64,000 nt of DNA from Desulfomonile tiedjei DSM 6799 (GTDB lineage Bacteria > Desulfobacterota > Desulfomonilia > Desulfomonilales > Desulfomonilaceae). The notes below the pieces were generated by a model. It was given only the letters and a program-made list of their open reading frames with translations. It searched no databases and was not told where the DNA came from. Location: NCBI RefSeq assembly GCF_000266945.1, contig NC_018025.1, positions 3,538,001 to 3,602,000 of the forward strand, read 5' to 3'. How positions within the stretch are numbered: position 1 is the first letter of the stretch; every line of letters begins with the position of its first letter. This document shows, in pieces, positions 2,788-29,306 of the stretch. The position numbers were made by a program, and so were the translations under genes.

Positions 2788-3363
2788 TTAGATAAAAAGC
2801 TGATTGATCGATTTCCTGGAATGGTTCAAGTAGGTGGCCACTCCAACGAATTCCATGTTCGGGTAGTCGATGATTTCTTCGCGCTTGAATCCCATGAGAT
2901 CCATGGACATCTCGCAGACTTTGATTTCCACGCCGAGTTGAGCCGCCATTTCGAAAAGCTGATCGAGATTGGGGGCGTTCTTCTTTTTCATCAGGCCCTT
3001 CATCATTGCCGTGCCCATTCCGCCCATGTTCATCTTGGAGAGTTTCAAGCTGTTGCGGCCTTTGGGCAGCATCCAGCCAAACATCTTGGACATGAAATCC
3101 TTACCTTCCACATTGGCTTCCGGTTTGCGGAGTGCAGCGGTTCCCCAGAATGTAAAGAACAGGACCACTTTCATGCCCATGGCAGCCGCTCCTGTGGCAA
3201 TAATCATTGATGCAAGCAGTTTGTCCATGTCGCCGGAAAAGACGATCATCGACAACTTGTTCTCCTGGGCGGGGCCCAATTCTTCGACTTTCTTTCGCAA
3301 ATCTGCGATCTGTGATTCGAGGTCCTCCAGATTCGGTGTCCGAGCCTCAGCGGGTAAGCTCAT
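2788..3363 (-). CDS. DsrE2-like sulfurtransferase (DsrE/F family)
   Basis: A 191-residue protein of the DsrE/DsrF-like superfamily, best matching the DsrE2 subgroup: an N-terminal Glu/Lys-rich helix (residues ~10-33), a Rossmann-like core with a hydrophobic strand pair, a Met/Lys/Gly-rich insert, and a Cys in the C-terminal third (VCEMSMDLMGF, around residue 150) typical of DsrE2 proteins. The start is supported by AAGGAG about eight bases upstream. It is the first gene of the operon with tusA, a NarI-like and an HdrD-like gene. DsrE2-TusA pairing is well known in sulfur oxidisers and also found in sulfate reducers, where its purpose is less clear. Confidence 0.82.
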   Translation of the reverse strand: MSLPAEARTPNLEDLESQIADLRKKVEELGPAQENKLSMIVFSGDMDKLLASMIIATGAAAMGMKVVLFFTFWGTAALRKPEANVEGKDFMSKMFGWMLPKGRNSLKLSKMNMGGMGTAMMKGLMKKKNAPNLDQLFEMAAQLGVEIKVCEMSMDLMGFKREEIIDYPNMEFVGVATYLNHSRKSINQLFI

Positions 3364-3756
3364 ATACGTTCTCCTTTCTTAGCTTCTTCTCACGTTTATG
3401 ACGCGGTGATGATTGATTCATGAGATTGTCTCCCGTCTTGATTTTCGGGAGCCTGTCTACTGTCAAGATAGATCTATTGCTATATTAAAATACTCTTATA
3501 ATTTTATACAGGGCTCAGCCGTGAATGTCAACAGAATCTGTCAAGAATTTGTTCGAGCCGATACGTGTTTCCCGATATACTATTATCATAGTAATATTCT
3601 GCTGTTGACCACATTTTCACGATACGGGGTTTCGTGAGATCGTGTTCAGACCGTTCGGTCATTACCGCTCAACTCGGTCAAAAGCTGAGTATTTCAGTTA
3701 AGAAAAAACCGGTGAGTGACCTTTCCGATTTTGGGAAGCAGATCTCTTAATGGTAG

Positions 3757-3937
3757 TACCAAAAATTCTGTCGTTTATCCCTCGTGTGAATTACAGGATA
3801 TTGGATAGGGACCGGCGTCCCTGCCGGTCCATTATAGCGATATCATTGATCATATTGAAGATGTGCCGGCACGGAGGCCGGCACCCACCAATACTCCTAT
3901 CCTCAACGGACATTAATTCTGGCAATCACTATAATGG
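3757..3937 (-). repeat. Family A ~165-bp double-hairpin dispersed repeat
   Basis: It contains two strong hairpins (a GACCGGCGTCCCTGCCGGTC type and a GTGCCGGC..GCCGGCAC type) joined by an AT-rich spacer with GATATCATTGAT. Reverse-complement near-copies lie at 47694-47866 and 56556-56720, and the similarity extends into both flanks (GTGTGAATTACAG side and GGACATTAATTCTGGCA side). The remainder of 3364-4127 shows no gene I can support. Confidence 0.8.
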
Positions 3938-4127
3938 CCCGGGAAAGCGTCTTCTAACGACACGTATACATTGCCAATGAGTTGTGTCACCAGTTTTCCC
4001 TTAATACCTGAGCCCTATTTTGATGGCCTGAAAAATCTTCTTGACGTTCTCTCTGCCATGGGCGTACCGTTAGTTAGAAGATCTGCCACAAGCCGCGCAA
4101 AATAGTTGCAATTAGGGGGGCTCCTCC

Positions 4128-7100
4128 ATGATTAAAGAAGTCGGAAATTCTGCTGCCGTAAGAATCCTGATCTGTGAAGACGAGCTACTATTTGCAGAAA
4201 ATCTTGCCGCTACGCTCAGGGATCTCGGATACGAAATTATCGGGACAGTTATGACCGGACAACATGCTATTGACATGGTCGAAGAAGTCCAGCCCGACCT
4301 GATCTTAATGGATATCGGTTTGTCCGGAGAGATAGACGGAGTAGAGGCAGCGCGGTGCATCCGGGCGCAATTTGACATTCCTCTGGTCTATCTCACGGCT
4401 TATGCCGAGGAAAATGTCTTTGACCGAGCCAAGAATACGGAACCTTACGGATATTTGGGCAAGCCATTCAGTCTGGTCGAACTTAAGTGCACGCTTGAGA
4501 CAACGTTGTGCAAACACCAAATAGACAGAAAAATGAGAGAAAGCGAAGCACGAAGAGCCAAGGCAGAAGAACTGGCAGGCCTTTATAGTTGGGAATGGGA
4601 TTTTCAGACGGGACGTTTTGTGTGGTCAGAACAATCATATCGCATCTTCGGCCTGAATCCCGATGAAACGAAGCTTGTCTTTGAAACGTTCATCAACTTA
4701 GTTCGTCCGGAGGACAGGGATCGTCTCAAAGATGCTCTCCGGGATGCGAAAGACGGGAAACGCCCCTATGAAATTGAGTTCCGTATCGTGCAACCGAACG
4801 GTCAAGAACGGATACTCCATAGCCGGGGCGAAATTCGCAATGATAGGAGAGGACGTGCGGTCCGAATGCAGGGAATGACCCTGGACATCACCGATCGCAA
4901 GAAAGCCGAGCAAGCCCTTCGAGAGAGTAAGAATCGATATCGCCAGGCCGTGGAAAACTCTCCTAATGCAATCCTCGCGGTTGATGCCGAGGGAACGGTA
5001 CTGTCATGGAATGACTCCTGTGAGCGGCTCACCGGCTACACCAAAGAGCGAGCCATAGGGAGCAGCGTTTTTGATCTTATTTTGCACCTTGAACGGACCA
5101 AAGTTGCGGATATCATCCATAAGGTCTTCGACGGACATTCCTTCAATGAAATCCCGCTGGATTTCTGTGCTGATAACGGCACGGCCCGGAAGATGATATC
5201 GCGTGCTTATCCGCTGATGGATGTAAACGGCAGGGTTCTGGAATGCATGCTCGCTAACACGGATATTACGGATCTGCACAACTCTCGGGAAGAATTGCGC
5301 AGGAGCGAAGAGCGATACAGAAGAATTGTAGAGACGGCAAATGAAGGTATCTGGGCCATGGACAGCGAATTTCGGACAACCTTCGTAAATCGGCGTATGG
5401 CTGATATGCTTGGATATTCTGTACCAGAGATGCTTGGCCGTACGGTTGATTCCTTCATATTCCAGGAAGATCTTGGGGATCATGAAACCAAAATGGAAAT
5501 GCTTCGTCGCGGGAGAAACCAGGTTTATGAGAGACGCTTCCGATGCAAGGACAATGCAGCTCTGTTGACAACGGTTTCGGCCACTGCGCTTCTGGATGAC
5601 GAGGGTGCTTTCGCCGGCTCATTCGCGATGTTCACCGATATAACCGAACGTAAGGATACTGAGAAGGCGCTCAGACAAAGTGAAAGCCGCTACAGAGATC
5701 TGTTCGACAATGCTCTGGATGTGATCTACACACACGACCTGGACGGAAACTATACTTCGGTAAATGAGGCAGCAAAGCGGTTGCTCGGCTATTCTGAACA
5801 GGAATTCTTGAAACTCAATTTCAGAGATCTGGTCACTCCGGAGCATCTGCCGATAACACTAGCCCACTTTCGACGAAAGCTCCAAAACAACCAGGACAGG
5901 ACCGAACCTTACGAGCTTCGCGTGCGCACAAAGGACGGCTCGCATCGGTGGTTCGAAGTCGTTTCAAGATTGATCAGAGAGGACGGACAGCCGGTTGCCG
6001 TTCACGGAATTGCCAGAGATATCACGGATCGGAAGCAGGCTGAAGAGGCTCTCAAAACGAGTGAACAAATACTGGATCGTATTCTCGCGGCTTCACCTGT
6101 GGGCATAGGCCTCAGTCACATGAGAAAGATGCGATGGGTGAACGACGCCTGGACACGACTATTCGGATTTGAGAATCGATCTGATTGCAAAGGCCAAGAT
6201 GCAATGCAACTCTACCCGTCTCGTGAAGACTTCCTGCGAGCAGGAGCCATCCTGTACAAGAATCTTGAAAGCGGAGTTATCAACGCAACTGATGCGAAAA
6301 TGAGAAGAAGAGACGGCTCCGTGTTTGACGCGTTCATACGAATGGCCGCTCTCGATCCCTTCGATCTGAGTGCAGGACAGATCGCGATGATAACGGATAT
6401 TTCCGATAGAAAGGCTGCGGAACAGGCTTTAGAAAAAAGTGAGGCAATGCTGAGCAGCATATTACAGGCAGCTCAAATAGGTATCGGCGTCTCGGTCAAT
6501 CGAACGCTCTCCTGGACTAACCCGATGATTTCTCGCATGACCGGGTACTCGGCCGCTGAGCTTAGCGGTCAATACGCAAGAATGTTGTACCCGAGTGACG
6601 AAAAATTTGAGCGTGTAGGTAAGATACAATATCGGGATATTGCGGAACTAGGGATCGGACAAATTGAAACGCAGTGGAAGCGTAAGGACGGAGAAATAAT
6701 AGATGTTTTTCTGAGTTCGGTTCCGATGGTACCGGAAGATGTTTCCAAAGGAGTTGTTTTCACGGTGCAAGATATAACCGACCGTAAGCGCGCAGAGCGA
6801 GCTCTGAGGGAAAGCGAAGAAAAATATAGAGCCACTTTCAACAATGTTGCCGTGGGAATCGATGTGGTGGATCGGGACGGACGATTCCAAAAAGTGAACG
6901 GCACCCTGTCCTCTTTGCTGGGCTACAGTGAGGAGGAGCTTCTCGACCTTACATTTTTCGATGTGACCCATCCCAGCGATGTGGAAGAATCTTCACATAG
7001 GCATGAAACGTTAATGCGGGGGGAACTGGATACCTATCGCTACGACAAACGATATATCCATAAAGATGGTTCGGTTATCTGGGCAGATACCAGCGTATCG

Positions 7101-23174: not shown

Positions 23175-24086
23175 TCACCGTTCCAGGAGATCGCGTAAAC
23201 GATTAGAAGACTCAATCAAAGGGTCTTCAGGCCACACTTTCACGTGTTTCAACATTCTCCAGATAATCTGATTGTCAGAAACATGCTCGCCGGGCTGATC
23301 AATACCTTGAGGAGGCCAGTCGAGAAATTTCGGGTCTCCGGACGTGCCTTCATCTTGGAGGTTGCGAAGCCGTACGAAAATACGGTCTGTGAACCCGTTC
23401 TTTCCGTTGGCATAAAATGTAACTTCTCCCTTTCCGAAGGACACCAAAGCCGACGACGGATCGAACGTTATATCCGGTTTTGAACGTTCATAGCGCTCTG
23501 CGAACGTGACGTCGATTACACCTCGAGGAAAAGGGCAACTATAGCGCACATGGAGAGCAAGCCAATGCTTTGACTCCGCGGCAATCTTGCATTTTAGCCA
23601 GTTGCCTTGAGACAGAAAAGCAGGGAATTGCATCGGCTCAGATAAGTCGTTTCTTATTGTGTAATTGTGCCGAAATTCGATGGAGCTCCACCTAGTGAAC
23701 TCCCAGGCGCGTGCTGAGAGTGGTATGCCGAGCACTGCCAGCATCGCACCCGCAACTTTTCCGAGGAACGCTCGGCGGTGCTCACCGGGGACGCTGACAT
23801 TTTCGATGATTTGTTGGATTTGAGTCTTCGGAATAGCATTGAGCAAGACGGTTTCAGTGTTGGACAATTCAAGCTCAATCTCGACGGCAGCCCCTGAACG
23901 CTTTGCAAGCAGGACGGAGCGGAATTCGGGATCGACAGAGGCTTTCTTTATGAGCACTTCAATACCGCGCGGAATGCCCTTGAATAATTCACTCTTTGTT
24001 ACTGATCGTTCGTCTACGATGGTCGGATCGATTTGAGTGCCCCCAGGAAAATTCCGGTCAGTATCCCGGGAAGAAGAATCCGCCAT
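23175..24086 (-). CDS. Unknown protein with internal twin-arginine-like segment
   Basis: A ~303-residue protein I do not recognise by name. Residues ~30-100 form a charged helical domain (ELFKGIPRGIEVLIKKAS.. region). At ~103-122 there is HRRAFLGK followed by a hydrophobic Ala/Leu/Gly stretch, a twin-arginine-like signal placed unusually deep in the protein. The remaining ~180 residues look beta-rich, with a second half containing WLALHVRYSCPFP and WPPQGID. AAGGAGA precedes the chosen ATG, and the longer frame to 24125 is unlikely. It has no operon partner. It could be exported with a cytoplasmic leader domain or anchored in the membrane; function is unknown. Confidence 0.72.
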   Translation of the reverse strand: MADSSSRDTDRNFPGGTQIDPTIVDERSVTKSELFKGIPRGIEVLIKKASVDPEFRSVLLAKRSGAAVEIELELSNTETVLLNAIPKTQIQQIIENVSVPGEHRRAFLGKVAGAMLAVLGIPLSARAWEFTRWSSIEFRHNYTIRNDLSEPMQFPAFLSQGNWLKCKIAAESKHWLALHVRYSCPFPRGVIDVTFAERYERSKPDITFDPSSALVSFGKGEVTFYANGKNGFTDRIFVRLRNLQDEGTSGDPKFLDWPPQGIDQPGEHVSDNQIIWRMLKHVKVWPEDPLIESSNRLRDLLER

Positions 24087-24664
24087 GGTGGATCTCCTTT
24101 TCACAAGGCCGGAAAAGCCTCTCACACATAAACGATCGGAGAAAGAATCATTCTCCTCTTACCACGATATCTTGCAGTACGTGCAGGGGTCAAGGTAATT
24201 CCATAAGCCGGCAAAATCACAGAGTCGAACCTTACTCAAGGCAGTCTTCCTACGGATTGGTGATTACATGTCCCTCCAAATTCTTCCACATCATCATCGG
24301 TATATTTGATTTGACATATCGGTCTTCCCTTGGTATAGATATTTATGACTTCTTATCACTTGACAGGAGTTCATCCGTGTACCGTTCTTTCGGCTTTACC
24401 TGAAGTAGCTCGAATCAAGCGACCCGTGTTTGGTTGGCTCTGAGCTAGGCCGAAAGACTCCCGTCCCCTGCCGCTTTCCCAAATATCAATCGAGGACCTC
24501 TTTCAGGCAAGCTCATCGACCTTCTTGATACTGATCGGCAAGCAAAGAAGTAGATCTGGGAGACTCTTTTGAAAGAAACGTTTCCTGAAATCCTTCCGAG
24601 ACCTTGTAGAATTCCTCTGAATCGCCGTTCTTGCGATGCAAAACCGATGATTCAGAAGAAATGT

Positions 24665-24733: not shown

Positions 24734-24825
24734 GGGGGCAATGGTGCTGGGCGCCCCGCGGGCTGCAAACCCGTTGGCCCGGTCTCGTAAACCGGGAGGA
24801 GGTTCGATTCCCCTTGCCCCCTCCA
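24734..24825 (+). tRNA. Unusual 8/4 tRNA, long variable arm, anticodon GCA (Cys-like, mimics tRNA-Sec)
   Basis: A 92-base cloverleaf can be drawn by hand. The 8-bp acceptor pairs GGGGGCAA (24734-24741) with TTGCCCCC (24814-24821); discriminator is T24822 and CCA is encoded. The D stem is GGTGC/GCGCC with a tiny TGG loop. The anticodon stem is GCGGG/CCCGT with loop CTGCAAA, giving anticodon GCA at 24765-24767. The variable arm is a 6-bp stem CCCGGT/ACCGGG. The T arm is only 4 bp (GG-A-GG/CCCC with a bulged A24800) around loop TTCGATT. The long variable arm, long acceptor and position about 105 bases before selB imitate selC, but GCA plus U73 are cysteine identity elements. A modified 8/4 tRNA-Cys with one bulge has, from memory, been described as a tRNA-Sec mimic in deltaproteobacteria. 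Canonical selC needs UCA. Confidence 0.8.
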
Positions 24826-24930: not shown

Positions 24931-26874
24931 ATGAATACATTTCTTACCGCAGGTGTTGCAGGACATGTCGATCACGGCAAGACCAGCCTTGTGCGGTTTC
25001 TGACCGGAATCGATACGGATCGTCTGAAAGAGGAAAAGCGACGGGGTCTTTCGATTGAACCCAGCGTTGCTCCTCTGAAGCTTCCGTCAGGCAACCGGAT
25101 CGCTTTGATGGACGTACCGGGTCATAGCGATTTCCTGAAGAATACTATTCGGGGATTGAGCGCTGTGGATATGGCCATTTTGGTGGTGGCAGCGGATGAT
25201 GGAGTCATGCCGCAGACCAGGGATCACTTGGCGGTGTTGAATTTCGTGAATGCAAAAGGCGGCTTCATTGTGCTCAGTAAGGCAGATCTGGTCGATCGCG
25301 AGACCGTAGAACTCGCTGAAATGGAAATCCGGGACATTATACAGGGCTCTTTTTTGGAGAATAAACCGGTAATTCCCTTCTCTGCCTTGGAAGGCAGCGG
25401 TCTGGAAGAAGTCTTGATGGCCACGGAAGACGAAGCCGAGCAGGTGCATGGCAAGGCGATTCAAGCTCCATTTCGCCTCTGGATCGATCAGGTCCGGAGT
25501 TTCCCCGGTTTCGGAACTGTGGCAAGCGGCACCGTGATGTCAGGGAGTATCACGCGGGATAATACCGTTGAGCTGTTGCCTTCGGGCAAGCAGGCGAAGG
25601 TGCGGTTTATTGAAGTTCATCATGAGCGGGTAGACCGGGCAGTGGCCGGACAACGGGTCGGTCTCAATCTGCAAGGCATCCCTCTTGAGGATCTCAAACT
25701 GGGAACGGTACTTGCCGCCCCGGGGGTTCTCACCCCTGCAAGCCTGTTCAATGCAGAGTTATCCCTCCTTCCAGGAACTCGGCGTCCGATCATGAATCGT
25801 CAGAGGGTCAAATTATATATCGGCACGTACTGTACAACGGCTCGCCTGGTGATGATGGGTCACGAGCGGCTTCATCCGGGAGAAACGGGATTGGTACAAC
25901 TGAGGCTCAGTGAACCGTTAGCTGTTCTCCCGAGAGACCCCTTTGTAATCTCACCGATGAATCTGCATGCGGTTATTGGAGGCGGCAGGATTCTCGAGAC
26001 ACCAAAGGAGAAGTTCCGATCTGGGAATTCGGAAAAAACCATGACCTATTTGCACCTCTTGCAGGAAGACAATGTGAAAAGCATTGTCAACCTGTACCTT
26101 GCCAAGTTCTCCAGCCGCCCGGTAACAGCGGATGAGATTGTGGTAGCGACAGGTTTGGAGCTCGAACGTATCCAGGCAGAGATCAACGCAAGAATGAAGT
26201 TAGGAAAACTGCTTCACCTGAACGGACGGGGATACTTCGATAAGAGTCATTACGAGCTTCTGAAAAGACGCCTCGTGGATGTCACGAAGAATATCCTCTC
26301 AAAGGATGCCTTTAAGCCCACGGCAAGCGCAGACGAAATCCGGTTTCGCCTGGACCCGAATCTGAATATTGCGATATTTGACCGAATGATCGGGGATCTG
26401 TGCAAAGACGGGAAGCTCACAAGAACTGAAAAAGGGTATAAAGTCACCAACTTTGTGGTCAAGCTCCCTTTGTCCAGAGAAAGACTCATAGAGCGGCTCA
26501 TCGATTTTGCCGCAAAACAGGGCTATTGGACTTTTTCTGCAGGAACATATTGGAAGCGTCACGGAGAAGGCATTGCTCATAGGGACGTGGAGAAAGTCCT
26601 CGATCATCTCCATGCTCAGAAGAAGCTCGTTCGACTCAATGACGGCCGTTTCTTAACCGTTGAAGCATTACATGACATCAAAGAACACGTGAGAACCCTG
26701 ATCCTGCAGAAAGGGAACCTGACCATTGAAGATGGTAAGAGAATCCTGGGGTACGGAAGAAACAGAGCCGTGCCGGTGCTCGATTATCTGGACACGATCG
26801 GATATACGAAGCGGAATGGCGATAAACGAGTGCTCAATCGGGAAGTCACTCATGGTGTGAGCATGATGTTATAA
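24931..26874 (+). CDS. selB: Selenocysteine-specific elongation factor SelB
   Basis: A 647-residue translational GTPase that delivers Sec-tRNA to UGA codons marked by a SECIS element. G1 is GHVDHGKT (residues ~11-18), G3 DVPGH, and G4 the SKAD variant of NKxD. EF-Tu-like domains II and III follow, then a C-terminal winged-helix array (residues ~380-640) that binds SECIS RNA. The open frame extends upstream through the tRNA, but the ATG at 24931 gives the usual SelB N terminus and length. The unusual tRNA lies ~105 bases upstream on the same strand. No selA or selD is present in this window, nor any obvious selenoprotein. Confidence 0.95.
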   Translation: MNTFLTAGVAGHVDHGKTSLVRFLTGIDTDRLKEEKRRGLSIEPSVAPLKLPSGNRIALMDVPGHSDFLKNTIRGLSAVDMAILVVAADDGVMPQTRDHLAVLNFVNAKGGFIVLSKADLVDRETVELAEMEIRDIIQGSFLENKPVIPFSALEGSGLEEVLMATEDEAEQVHGKAIQAPFRLWIDQVRSFPGFGTVASGTVMSGSITRDNTVELLPSGKQAKVRFIEVHHERVDRAVAGQRVGLNLQGIPLEDLKLGTVLAAPGVLTPASLFNAELSLLPGTRRPIMNRQRVKLYIGTYCTTARLVMMGHERLHPGETGLVQLRLSEPLAVLPRDPFVISPMNLHAVIGGGRILETPKEKFRSGNSEKTMTYLHLLQEDNVKSIVNLYLAKFSSRPVTADEIVVATGLELERIQAEINARMKLGKLLHLNGRGYFDKSHYELLKRRLVDVTKNILSKDAFKPTASADEIRFRLDPNLNIAIFDRMIGDLCKDGKLTRTEKGYKVTNFVVKLPLSRERLIERLIDFAAKQGYWTFSAGTYWKRHGEGIAHRDVEKVLDHLHAQKKLVRLNDGRFLTVEALHDIKEHVRTLILQKGNLTIEDGKRILGYGRNRAVPVLDYLDTIGYTKRNGDKRVLNREVTHGVSMML

Positions 26875-27139: not shown

Positions 27140-27892
27140 TCATCTCTGAGCCGCATAAAGTGCAGCTCCGAGTGCTCCTACCATGTCAGGTTCGGATGCC
27201 ACTAGTATCCCCGATCTGGTTTCCCGTTCGATGAGTTCTCTTATGCAGGGATTCAGGGCAACCCCTCCGGAAAAGACCAGAGGACCGTCCACGGAAACCC
27301 TCCTTAACATGGAGAGTGAGCGTTTGACTACTGAGTGGTGAAGAGCAAGGGCTATATCTTGAGGTCTATGTCCTCGTGCCATCAAGGATGTTGCCTCCGA
27401 CTCGGCAAAAACCGTGCACATGCTGTTAATGGAAAGCCCGAGTGTCCCCTCCAATGCAAAATCTCCAAACTCTTCGATAGGGATTTGGAAGCTTGTAGCC
27501 ATGAATTCGAGGAACTTGCCCGTTCCTGCCGCACAACGGTCGTTCATCTCGAATTTTGCCACCCGTCCGGCCGAATCCAGCGAGATCGCTTTCGTATCCT
27601 GTCCGCCGATATCCAGGACGGAACGGCCCGCGGGAAAGAGGTGTTTCGCGCCAAGAGCATGTGCGAAGATCTCCGTAATGCTCTCGGCCTTCACATGGTC
27701 TTTGAAGAGCTTTCTCCCGTAACCTGTAGTGACGGTATGTTCGGCGGAAAAGCCGTTCAGAATCTTATGGCATTGTTCCAAGGGTGTGAACGTAGTCTCT
27801 GCTTTTCTGAATGCCAGGATCCGTTTTGAGTCCGGATCCAGGAAAACAACTTTGATTGTCCGGGACCCTACATCTATGCCGCATACCGCCAT
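27140..27892 (-). CDS. BadF/HgdC-type ATPase activator of the adjacent dehydratase-family protein
   Basis: A ~250-residue ASKHA-fold ATPase: phosphate-1 motif CGIDVGSRTIKVVF at the N terminus, DIGGQDTKAI near the middle, and GALGAALYAA at the end. Two Cys (NDRCAAGTGKFLE and SMCTVFAESE) are those that bridge a [4Fe-4S] cluster across the homodimer in HgdC. It drives an ATP-dependent low-potential electron into its partner. The ATG at 27892 has GGTGAG six bases upstream; the longest frame (27991) adds ~33 unlikely residues, and an ATG at 27904 is an alternative. The gene starts ~105 bases after the partner stop at 27999, with the same strand, so the two are probably co-transcribed. Confidence 0.88.
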   Translation of the reverse strand: MAVCGIDVGSRTIKVVFLDPDSKRILAFRKAETTFTPLEQCHKILNGFSAEHTVTTGYGRKLFKDHVKAESITEIFAHALGAKHLFPAGRSVLDIGGQDTKAISLDSAGRVAKFEMNDRCAAGTGKFLEFMATSFQIPIEEFGDFALEGTLGLSINSMCTVFAESEATSLMARGHRPQDIALALHHSVVKRSLSMLRRVSVDGPLVFSGGVALNPCIRELIERETRSGILVASEPDMVGALGAALYAAQR

Positions 27893-27998
27893 ATTACTCA
27901 CCATGCCCAATTCGCAATTTTTCTTGATCACTCGATCTTGAAAGTCACAGAGAGAGTTCCAAGAAAGTTCCTCCTTCTGTGACGCAATCATTATCAGT

Positions 27999-29306
27999 TT
28001 ATGAACATCGACAGGTGCTGCAGCCGGCCATTTTTATCCTCTCGCTAAATGCTTCAACACGTGTCTTGATCTGTTCCACATCTTCCATGCTGTAGTCGGT
28101 ATCGATTCTCAAGGTCGGTATTCCTGCCTCTTCAAGAGCTTTCTCCACCGGTAGCGATTCAATCTGATACGGCTGGCAGAACTGCAGGCCGTAATGGATA
28201 ACTCCATCTGCCTTATAATCGTTGAACATCTGCTTGACGTGATTGAGTCGATCCGAATTCGGAGTGAAGATAGCGCAGTCCACTTTGAAATATCTGTCCA
28301 CTATGGACTCCATCAGCTCATCAACAGTGCTGCCTGAGGCATCAGTCTGATTGCGTGTGCCCCGCTCTCCTACACACGATTCTTCTCCCACGATTACTGC
28401 TCCCGATGATTCAATAACCCACGGAAGCTTCCAGTTAGGCACGGCCATGGGGCAACCGGACAACAGAATGCGAGGCGCTCCTTTTTTATCGAGGCCTTTC
28501 CCTTCGCGAATTCTCCCCTCAAGCTCATCACAGAGCTTGTTGACTGAATCCGTGAACCGAATGGGATCGTCATAGAAAAATACCTGGTTGATCAAGAGCG
28601 CATCCAAGCCGGAAATGGGCAGAGGATCGGCTTTCCTCAATTGGGAAAGGCGATGAACAGCTTTGCGCTTGTTATTCACTATCTCAATGCCTTTCTTGAG
28701 ACGATCGGCATCTATGGTTACCCCGGTAAGCTCTTCCACGGTCTTCTTGAATTTGTCGTATTCGGCCCTCAAAACAGATCTGCCTTCGTTCGATTTGGTC
28801 TGAGGCAAGTCCATCACGTAGAGGTTTGGAACCAGGGCGTCCAACACCTCATAAGACTTCTTCTTGCCGTCACAGGTATTTTCTCCCACGATCATATCGG
28901 ACGACTCGATATAAGGGCATACCTTGCCGAGCTTGAACCCGAATGCGGACTTAATGAGAGAGCATGTATTGCGGGGAAGCAGCTTTTCCACTTCTTCCGT
29001 GGCGAAATCCGCGCCTGTGCACAATCCCACGAGGGTGGCATCAGCAGCTCTGATGATTTCTTCGGGCACGAAAACACAGAAAGAGCCGATAACCTTGTGC
29101 CCTTCTTTCTTGCCATCGACAAGCTCTTTGACTCGCAAGCCATGGACCTCGCTCATGACGAAGTTGAAGTAATCCATCCCTTGCGGTCGATCGGTTTGGC
29201 TCAAGAAGATGTCCTGATAACCTTTTCCCAGCACCTGGAGAAGAGCGTCATGCGATGCCAAATCCAATCCGAGATCTTTCCACATCTGCTCGTACGTGGC
29301 AGCCAT
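27999..29306 (-). CDS. 2-hydroxyacyl-CoA dehydratase/BcrC-family protein, probable double-cubane cluster protein
   Basis: A 435-residue member of the HgdB/BcrC family of ATP-dependently activated Fe-S enzymes. Conserved Cys positions include GLCTGAD, SLIKSAFGFKLGKVCPYIE, VGENTCDGKKK, LSGCPM, GEESCVGERG and GLQFCQPYQ, with a Cys-rich tail GCSTCRCS. Only one dehydratase-family subunit is encoded beside one activator, without the second subunit or CoA-transferase that true 2-hydroxyacyl-CoA dehydratases need. That single-subunit-plus-activator arrangement is characteristic of the YjiM/YjiL and double-cubane cluster proteins, which bind an [8Fe-9S] cluster. AAAAGGAGG lies upstream of the ATG. Substrate is unknown; participation in aromatic or acyl-CoA reduction is possible but less likely. 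Confidence 0.8.
   Translation of the reverse strand: MAATYEQMWKDLGLDLASHDALLQVLGKGYQDIFLSQTDRPQGMDYFNFVMSEVHGLRVKELVDGKKEGHKVIGSFCVFVPEEIIRAADATLVGLCTGADFATEEVEKLLPRNTCSLIKSAFGFKLGKVCPYIESSDMIVGENTCDGKKKSYEVLDALVPNLYVMDLPQTKSNEGRSVLRAEYDKFKKTVEELTGVTIDADRLKKGIEIVNNKRKAVHRLSQLRKADPLPISGLDALLINQVFFYDDPIRFTDSVNKLCDELEGRIREGKGLDKKGAPRILLSGCPMAVPNWKLPWVIESSGAVIVGEESCVGERGTRNQTDASGSTVDELMESIVDRYFKVDCAIFTPNSDRLNHVKQMFNDYKADGVIHYGLQFCQPYQIESLPVEKALEEAGIPTLRIDTDYSMEDVEQIKTRVEAFSERIKMAGCSTCRCS

What the first reader, a model, noticed from the sequence alone, without database searches (positions are those of the whole stretch)
27140..29306. Single-subunit dehydratase-family protein with its own ATPase: probable double-cubane cluster protein
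True 2-hydroxyacyl-CoA dehydratases need two subunits; here only one, with a Cys-rich C-terminal tail GCSTCRCS, is paired with a BadF-type activator. This is the layout of YjiM/YjiL and the double-cubane cluster reductases, whose physiological substrates are unknown.
Basis: partly seen in the sequence, partly recalled or inferred. Interest (0 to 1): 0.55.

Follow-up and report, generated by a model that had tools for sequence, protein, structure and literature searches.

The report
Double-cubane reductase in selenium-gene neighbourhood
This is an ordinary member of a known family of ATP-driven iron-sulfur reductases whose natural job is unknown, but it and its relatives keep turning up beside selenium-handling genes, including an odd cysteine tRNA that mimics the selenocysteine tRNA, which points to a role in selenium metabolism.

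Summary
Window 27999-29306 (-) encodes a double-cubane cluster protein (DCCP): NCBIfam NF040772 469 bits against a cut-off of 350, 49% identity to PDB 6eno, AlphaFold model TM 0.93/0.96, and the six double-cubane ligand cysteines aligned and invariant. The downstream activase is its DCCP-reductase. No second subunit is nearby. The Cys-rich tail GCSTCRCS is not part of the cluster: it occurs only in three Desulfomonile sequences and is disordered in the model.

Convergent with the pair lie a tRNASec-shaped tRNA with cysteine identity (24734-24825; U73, GCA) and a second, divergent SelB (24931-26874), the selC*/selB* pair known from the literature. Across the phylum, selenium genes lie near DCCP in 13 of 40 loci against 0 of 39 for paralogous dehydratases. 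SelBs near DCCP form one clade apart from ordinary SelBs. selC* genomes carry DCCP in 18 of 24, against 74 of 223 others; in 8 of 24 within 3.4 kb.

Best reading: a bona fide DCCP that works in selenium metabolism. The substrate remains inferred. A DCCP-selenium link is already in print; I found no DCCP-selC*/selB* link.

The parts
27999..29306 (-). Double-cubane cluster protein (DCCP), 435 aa
   Evidence: NF040772 double_cubane 469.2 bits against cut-off 350; PDB 6eno/7yyl E 1e-137; AF2 model pLDDT 86.5, pTM 0.88, TM 0.93/0.96 to 6eno
28176..29078 (-). Span of the six predicted double-cubane ligand cysteines C77, C115, C145, C311, C344, C377 of DCCP
   Evidence: Map one to one on BzdN C36/73/100/263/293/327 (ligands as stated in PMC11971306) and on 6eno C76/114/144/309/341/374; invariant in 138 of 138 aligned rows (the window's own protein is in twice)
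28002..28025 (-). C-terminal tail GCSTCRCS, not part of the cluster site
   Evidence: Only in Desulfomonile sequences; residues 430-435 pLDDT under 50
27140..27892 (-). DCCP-reductase (ATP-dependent activase), 250 aa from the likely start; the ORF is open to 27991
   Evidence: TIGR00241 208 bits against 125.4; matches DCCP-R chain 7yyl_E, E 5e-42, and 4eht, with NDRCAAGTG and SMCTVFAESE motifs in line; start by homology and RBS
24734..24825 (+). selC*-type tRNA-Cys: tRNASec-like body (long acceptor and variable arm, 92 nt), anticodon GCA, discriminator U73, bulge in the T stem
   Evidence: ARAGORN, sequence and fold, RF01852 51.9 bits over gathering 47, model R1 113.3 bits against 38.2 for the genome's ordinary tRNASec
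24931..26874 (+). Second, divergent SelB (SelB*), 647 aa, convergent with the DCCP pair (265 bp between the two genes)
   Evidence: TIGR00475 293.7 bits against 242.25; main SelB of the genome is elsewhere, G000:C1:5619382, 404.5 bits; falls in the DCCP-adjacent SelB clade, 100/98; coordinates

Best explanation
The pair is a bona fide DCCP with its dedicated ATPase reductase (shown at the level of sequence and predicted fold). By homology the ATPase dimer receives an electron, and ATP hydrolysis drives it to very low potential into the [8Fe-9S] double cubane of DCCP, which reduces a small substrate (mechanism known for the Carboxydothermus pair, inferred here). Its physiological setting is selenium metabolism (inferred from gene neighbourhood): it belongs with selenium uptake and trafficking genes (YedE, YedF, Se_S_carrier, SelD, the selenium LysR regulator) and with the selC*/SelB* pair, which is thought to put cysteine at selenocysteine codons (recalled from the titles and abstracts of the primary papers, which are not held). 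The most likely job is reductive handling of a selenium compound, such as freeing selenide from an oxidised, elemental or methylated form when selenium is scarce. Stepwise: DCCP identity about 0.97; selenium-related role about 0.7; selenide release as the actual reaction about 0.35.
For: DCCP identity. Selenium setting: selenium genes within 8 kb in 13 of 40 phylum-sample DCCP loci and, with shorter flanks, 31 of 81 nearest-relative loci, against 0 of 39 paralogous HGD-D loci (Fisher p 7.6e-5 and 7.7e-7). Nearest relatives: L035 has YedE, DUF3343 and SelB* around the pair; L036 has the curated selenium LysR NF040786 and YedE beside it. The SelBs near DCCP form one clade. selC* next to SelB* in the window and in 14 of the 17 loci scanned. 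selC* genomes carry DCCP in 18 of 24 against 74 of 223, p 9.6e-5, family-stratified z 2.6; 8 of 24 within 3.4 kb. L061 and L091: selC*-selB*-cysS*-DCCP, in L061 with cysS* stop and DCCP start overlapping and selD-yedF behind. In E. coli and Klebsiella the DCCP operon holds a Se_S_carrier gene. Literature: DCCP called provisionally selenium-linked in PMC10418091, and Slackia selenium clusters in PMC5322559.
Against: Most DCCP loci show no selenium gene in the flank held: 27 of 40 and 50 of 81. Co-occurrence of DCCP with YedE (p 0.36) and SelD (p 0.15) is not significant; with SelB it is modest (90 of 225 against 2 of 22, p 0.0045). 6 of 24 selC* genomes have no DCCP. DCCPs of Sulfurovum and Acetoanaerobium show none of the searched selenium genes in the flanks read. 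Known in-vitro substrates of DCCP are acetylene, hydrazine and azide (PMC11971306), not selenium compounds. In the window itself the two gene pairs are convergent, so they are not one operon there.
Confidence: 0.65

Rival explanations
1. A selenium-free substitute: DCCP is an iron-sulfur reductase switched on when selenium is lacking, replacing a selenoenzyme's reaction, while selC*/SelB* makes cysteine versions of selenoproteins. It would be selenium-responsive but would not act on selenium.
For: Same neighbourhood data. selC* with U73 reads as a cysteine tRNA, and the review describes cysteine charging of selC*.
Against: The neighbours also include uptake and activation genes (YedE, YedF, SelD), which fit acquisition better than replacement. 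I saw no candidate replaced enzyme in the loci.
Confidence: 0.2
2. A general small-molecule or detoxifying reductase (acetylene, azide, hydrazine-like substrates) that lies beside selenium genes by shared anaerobic regulation or chance clustering.
For: Reported in-vitro substrates (PMC11971306 passages); most loci lack selenium neighbours; other recurrent neighbours are Hdr-like and Pst-like genes.
Against: 0 of 39 paralogous loci show selenium genes; selC* linkage recurs over the DCCP tree, needing 14 label changes for 15 rows; enterobacterial operons hold a Se_S_carrier gene.
Confidence: 0.2
3. A 2-hydroxyacyl-CoA dehydratase or benzoyl-CoA-reductase-type catabolic enzyme acting on a CoA ester.
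For: Same superfamily: PF06050, 3o3m_B 2.9e-24 and BzdN 6.2e-19.
Against: All catabolic equivalog models are far under cut-off (126.9 of 700, 76.6 of 453.8, 64.8 of 421); no second subunit nearby and no CoA-ester genes among the neighbours scanned.
Confidence: 0.03

Closest known systems
DCCP / DCCP-R of Carboxydothermus hydrogenoformans (PDB 6eno, 7yyl, 7yzm)
   Same: Whole-length match, 49% identity, six ligand cysteines, fold TM 0.93/0.96, adjacent ATPase reductase
   Different: Extra C-terminal CSTCRCS tail; C285 in place of a Thr; neighbourhood with selC*/selB*
YjiM / YjiL of Escherichia coli
   Same: Single-subunit DCCP-family protein plus activase in one operon; the control genome E. 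coli rings above cut-off
   Different: Distant branch, about 38% identity; operon continues into ytiA, a Se_S_carrier, instead of a convergent selC*/selB*
BzdNO class I benzoyl-CoA reductase
   Same: BzdN carries the same [8Fe-9S] cluster with the same six cysteine positions
   Different: Heterodimer with a CoA-ester active site; 25% identity
selC* tRNACys / selB* / cysS* system (Mukai et al. 2017, as told in the review PMC7609411)
   Same: tRNASec-like body, U73, GCA or UCA anticodon, second SelB just downstream, truncated CysRS in some
   Different: The review passages read do not mention DCCP; the DCCP linkage is what is added here

Membership tests
Double-cubane cluster protein (DCCP, NF040772) | Score over the curated equivalog cut-off | tested here: met
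   469.2 bits against 350
Double-cubane cluster protein (DCCP, NF040772) | Six cysteine ligands of the [8Fe-9S] cluster | tested here: met
   C77/115/145/311/344/377 map on the six BzdN ligands and are invariant, 138 of 138 rows (ligand list from PMC11971306)
Double-cubane cluster protein (DCCP, NF040772) | Fold of the solved DCCP | tested here: met
   Foldseek 2.6e-44, TM 0.93/0.96, rmsd 1.6 to 6eno
Double-cubane cluster protein (DCCP, NF040772) | Dedicated ATPase reductase next door, no second subunit | tested here: met
   Activase directly downstream; other HGD-D genes over 1.7 Mb away
Double-cubane cluster protein (DCCP, NF040772) | Homodimer holding the [8Fe-9S] cluster; ATP-dependent reduction | not testable with these tools
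   Needs protein, EPR and activity assays
2-hydroxyacyl-CoA dehydratase | Two HGD-D subunits encoded together | tested here: not met
   One only at this locus
2-hydroxyacyl-CoA dehydratase | Score over HadB/HadC cut-offs | tested here: not met
   126.9 of 700 and 25.1 of 750 bits
Class I benzoyl-CoA reductase | Score over BzdN/BcrC cut-offs | tested here: not met
   76.6 of 453.8 and 64.8 of 421.15 bits
selC* tRNACys (24734-24825) | tRNASec-like body with U73 and Cys or opal anticodon | tested here: met
   92 nt, GCA, U73, long variable arm; RF01852 51.9 bits
selC* tRNACys (24734-24825) | Charged with cysteine and delivered by SelB* | not testable with these tools
   Only described for other members in the review
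selB* (24931-26874) | Second SelB downstream of selC*, distinct from the main SelB | tested here: met
   Over selB cut-off, one clade apart from main SelBs, main SelB elsewhere
Selenium-metabolism gene set | Recurrent neighbourhood with selenium genes above a paralogue control | tested here: met
   13 of 40 and 31 of 81 against 0 of 39
Selenium-metabolism gene set | Genome-level co-occurrence with YedE and SelD | tested here: inconclusive
   p 0.36 and 0.15; SelB p 0.0045, stratified z 2.6

The most novel reading that the evidence does not exclude
DCCP with its reductase, selC* tRNACys, SelB* (and CysRS* where present), YedE/YedF/Se_S_carrier and SelD form one selenium-scarcity module: DCCP uses ATP-driven super-reduction to release selenide from recalcitrant selenium forms, while selC*/SelB* keeps selenoprotein messages readable by inserting cysteine. 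That would give two orphan systems, the double-cubane reductases and the selC*/selB* recoding pair, a common purpose.
Probability: 0.25. Interest if true: 0.85.

Novelty: new member of a known kind. Interest (0 to 1): 0.55.

Why it matters
PMC11971306 says that the biological function of DCCPs is unknown (passage). A repeated link of the gene to selC*/selB* and selenium transport genes turns 'substrate unknown' into a short list of testable substrates, usable in E. coli K-12, whose DCCP operon also holds a selenium/sulfur carrier gene. It would also tie a tRNA of unclear purpose to a physiological condition.

Tried and rejected
The Cys-rich tail as a cluster ligand or family mark: rejected, genus-only and disordered. 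A dehydratase or benzoyl-CoA reductase role: rejected by cut-offs and missing partner. Genome-level co-occurrence with YedE or SelD as support: not significant. Reading the ARAGORN 'SeC' calls beside SelB* as ordinary tRNASec: rejected, all 16 listed carry U73 while the genome's main tRNASec carries G73. The weak model hits of 44-60 bits (4 genomes; L075 and L135) were left out as likely ordinary tRNASec; with all 28 genomes the DCCP count, taken by hand, would be 19 of 28. Cross-phylum co-occurrence: not done, because a centre outside the own phylum was not accepted. One search was a pointless fetch and is not used.

Papers: passages only of PMC11971306, PMC7306483, PMC10418091, PMC9068703, PMC10134865, PMC8124441 and PMC8762117; outline, passages and the first part of the results of PMC5322559; abstract, passages and section 5 of PMC7609411. 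Mukai et al. 2017, Vargas-Rodriguez et al. 2018, the Jeoung and Dobbek papers and Haft and Gwadz 2023 were not held, so they are recalled or known through citations only.

Full report
What is there. The window holds two minus-strand genes, a 435-aa HGD-D protein (27999-29306) and an activase (27140-27991, probably starting at 27892). The first matches the curated NCBIfam model for double-cubane-cluster-containing anaerobic reductases with 469.2 bits against a cut-off of 350, while all dehydratase and benzoyl-CoA reductase models stay far under their cut-offs. Its best solved relatives are the Carboxydothermus DCCP entries 6eno and 7yyl (the organism is recalled), and the activase matches the DCCP-R chain of 7yyl and other activases. 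An AlphaFold model from 43 sequences (pLDDT 86.5, pTM 0.88) superposes on 6eno with TM 0.93/0.96 and rmsd 1.6. That the genome is Desulfomonile tiedjei DSM 6799 is my recall from its size (6,527,027 bases, 2 contigs; main contig 6,500,104); named close relatives are Desulfomonile.

Cluster cysteines. PMC11971306 lists the six double-cubane ligands of BzdN as Cys36/73/100/263/293/327 (passage). In the phmmer alignments these fall on C77/115/145/311/344/377 of the window protein and on six cysteines of 6eno; all six are invariant in 138 of 138 rows (the window's own protein is in twice and other rows are close relatives). The tail cysteines 429/432/434 belong to the three Desulfomonile sequences.

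Surroundings in the window. Upstream of DCCP lies a GNAT protein on the other strand; downstream, 265 bp from the activase's end, ends a convergent SelB-family gene (24931-26874; TIGR00475 293.7 bits against 242.25). It is not the genome's main SelB, which lies at 5.62 Mb with 404.5 bits. Just before it is a 92-nt tRNA (24734-24825) that ARAGORN calls tRNA-Cys(GCA) but that has a tRNASec-like body: long acceptor, long variable arm, U73, 51.9 bits to Rfam tRNA-Sec with gathering 47. The ordinary tRNASec of the genome, with UCA and G73, is at 3.20 Mb. The review PMC7609411 (section 5 and passages) describes this kind of pair as selC* tRNACys and selB*, with an extra CysRS* in Desulfobacterales, citing Mukai et al. 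2017; DCCP is not mentioned in what I read.

Is the selenium context general? I scanned ORFs around DCCP genes for SelA, SelB, SelD, YedE, YedF, SelU and DUF3343 (Se_S_carrier). At least one lay within 8 kb in 13 of 40 DCCP loci of a phylum sample (40 of the 102 places, fetched) and in 31 of 81 loci of the nearest relatives including the window (flanks 5 kb or less), but in 0 of 39 loci of paralogous non-DCCP HGD-D genes (40 fetched; one had no anchor). Fisher p is 7.6e-5 and 7.7e-7. Part of the queries came from DCCP neighbours; with E. coli queries only the counts are 9 of 40, 14 of 81 and 0 of 39. Family assignments of representatives: YedE TIGR04112, YedF TIGR03527, SelD TIGR00476, SelB TIGR00475, IscA_HesB_Se, Se_S_carrier PF11823 and the selenium LysR NF040786 in L036, L048 and L054. 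The nearest relative L035 has a carbohydrate-kinase-like gene, DUF3343 and YedE divergent from DCCP, then DCCP, activase, and convergent SelB*. In E. coli and Klebsiella the DCCP operon ends in a Se_S_carrier gene (ytiA in E. coli).

SelB* and selC*. In a tree of 31 SelBs, the 15 lying near DCCP form one group (100/98; 0 of 500 shuffles as low) apart from 15 main SelBs of the phylum. The near ones were chosen by nearness, so this shows that DCCP-adjacent SelBs are of one kind, not that all of that kind are near DCCP. tRNASec-like tRNAs lie in front of SelB* in the window and in 14 of 17 loci scanned; none of 16 such tRNAs has G73. A covariance model of 14 of them finds 24 strong hits in 247 genomes (28 at E 1e-9; 4 weak ones left out). 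DCCP occurs in 18 of these 24 genomes against 74 of the other 223 (p 9.6e-5; stratified by family z 2.6); start-to-start distances are under 3.4 kb in 8, about 10-11 kb in 3, 47 kb in 1; in 6 the two are on different contigs and 6 genomes have no DCCP. The model hits 11 of 80 relative loci in full, one more (L048) as a partial copy, and 3 of 40 phylum loci strongly, against 0 of 40 control loci. In L061 and L091 the order is selC*-selB*-cysS*-DCCP; in L061 the cysS* protein (TIGR00435, 461.6 bits, matching only to position 384 of 466) ends in an ATGA overlap with the DCCP start, with activase, SelD and YedF following. The selC* and selenium labels are scattered over the DCCP tree: 14 changes for 15 selC* rows, 7 forced by starred branches, quick method. 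That fits repeated assembly or an old link often lost.

What speaks against. DCCP and YedE (p 0.36) or SelD (p 0.15) do not co-occur significantly; SelB does modestly (90 of 225 against 2 of 22, p 0.0045) in a phylum where 225 of 247 genomes have SelB. Of the two DCCP genomes without a SelB hit, G138 lacks SelD too yet carries selC* 1.75 kb from DCCP and is a 90% complete assembly. DCCPs of Sulfurovum and Acetoanaerobium show none of the searched selenium genes in the flanks read.

Literature. PMC10418091 (passages) already calls DCCP provisionally linked to selenium metabolism; PMC5322559 (passages and results) shows a 2-hydroxyglutaryl-CoA dehydratase subunit and a CoA-substrate-specific activase among selenium genes of Slackia; PMC7306483 (passages) reports a LysR gene in the DCCP transcriptional unit of Calderihabitans. 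The general DCCP-selenium link is therefore not new. I found no paper tying DCCP to selC*/selB* in searches, but the primary selC* papers are not held.

Mechanism. Shown: family, predicted fold, ligand cysteines, gene pair, neighbourhood. Inferred from the known pair: ATP-gated low-potential electron transfer from DCCP-R to the double cubane. Inferred from context: selenium-related substrate. I favour reductive release of selenide, with a selenium-free substitute function as the main rival.

Noticed in passing
L044:2996-4989: A second selC* copy followed by a selB* split into two frames (3107-3637 and 3592-4989) next to an intact selC*-selB* pair.
   Followed up: no
L045:4412-4912, L077:4097-4852, L082:7156-7698 and others: A conserved small protein family of about 160-190 aa without Pfam or NCBIfam match (L095 member in both, L082 member in Pfam) sits near DCCP in 17 loci; looks RelE-like by eye.
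   Followed up: partly
L035:1587-2486, L042:9772-10650, L082:9840-10748: A carbohydrate-kinase-like protein (PF01256) next to DUF3343 in selenium gene clusters, possibly an unnamed selenium gene.
   Followed up: partly
L036:6556-9999, L041, L074, L099, L106: A Pst-like ABC transporter closely downstream of the DCCP activase in several loci.
   Followed up: partly
L095, L103, L107, L111 upstream of DCCP: Hdr-like and CCG-domain iron-sulfur proteins, in some with IscA/HesB-type genes, recur upstream of DCCP and could be electron donors.
   Followed up: no
L160:10382-11306: The activase reading frame overlaps the following selC* tRNA gene.
   Followed up: no
NZ_CP079125.1, NZ_LT985269.1 and other plasmid records: yjiM-type DCCP genes on small enterobacterial plasmid records.
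   Followed up: partly
window 23175-24125: Weak match, under cut-off, to an NHLP-clan RiPP precursor domain (25.5 of 40 bits).
   Followed up: no
G000:C1:3873142-3874065: SelD of the genome is read with one in-frame TGA, so it is probably itself a selenoprotein, as in most of the phylum's listed SelDs.
   Followed up: no
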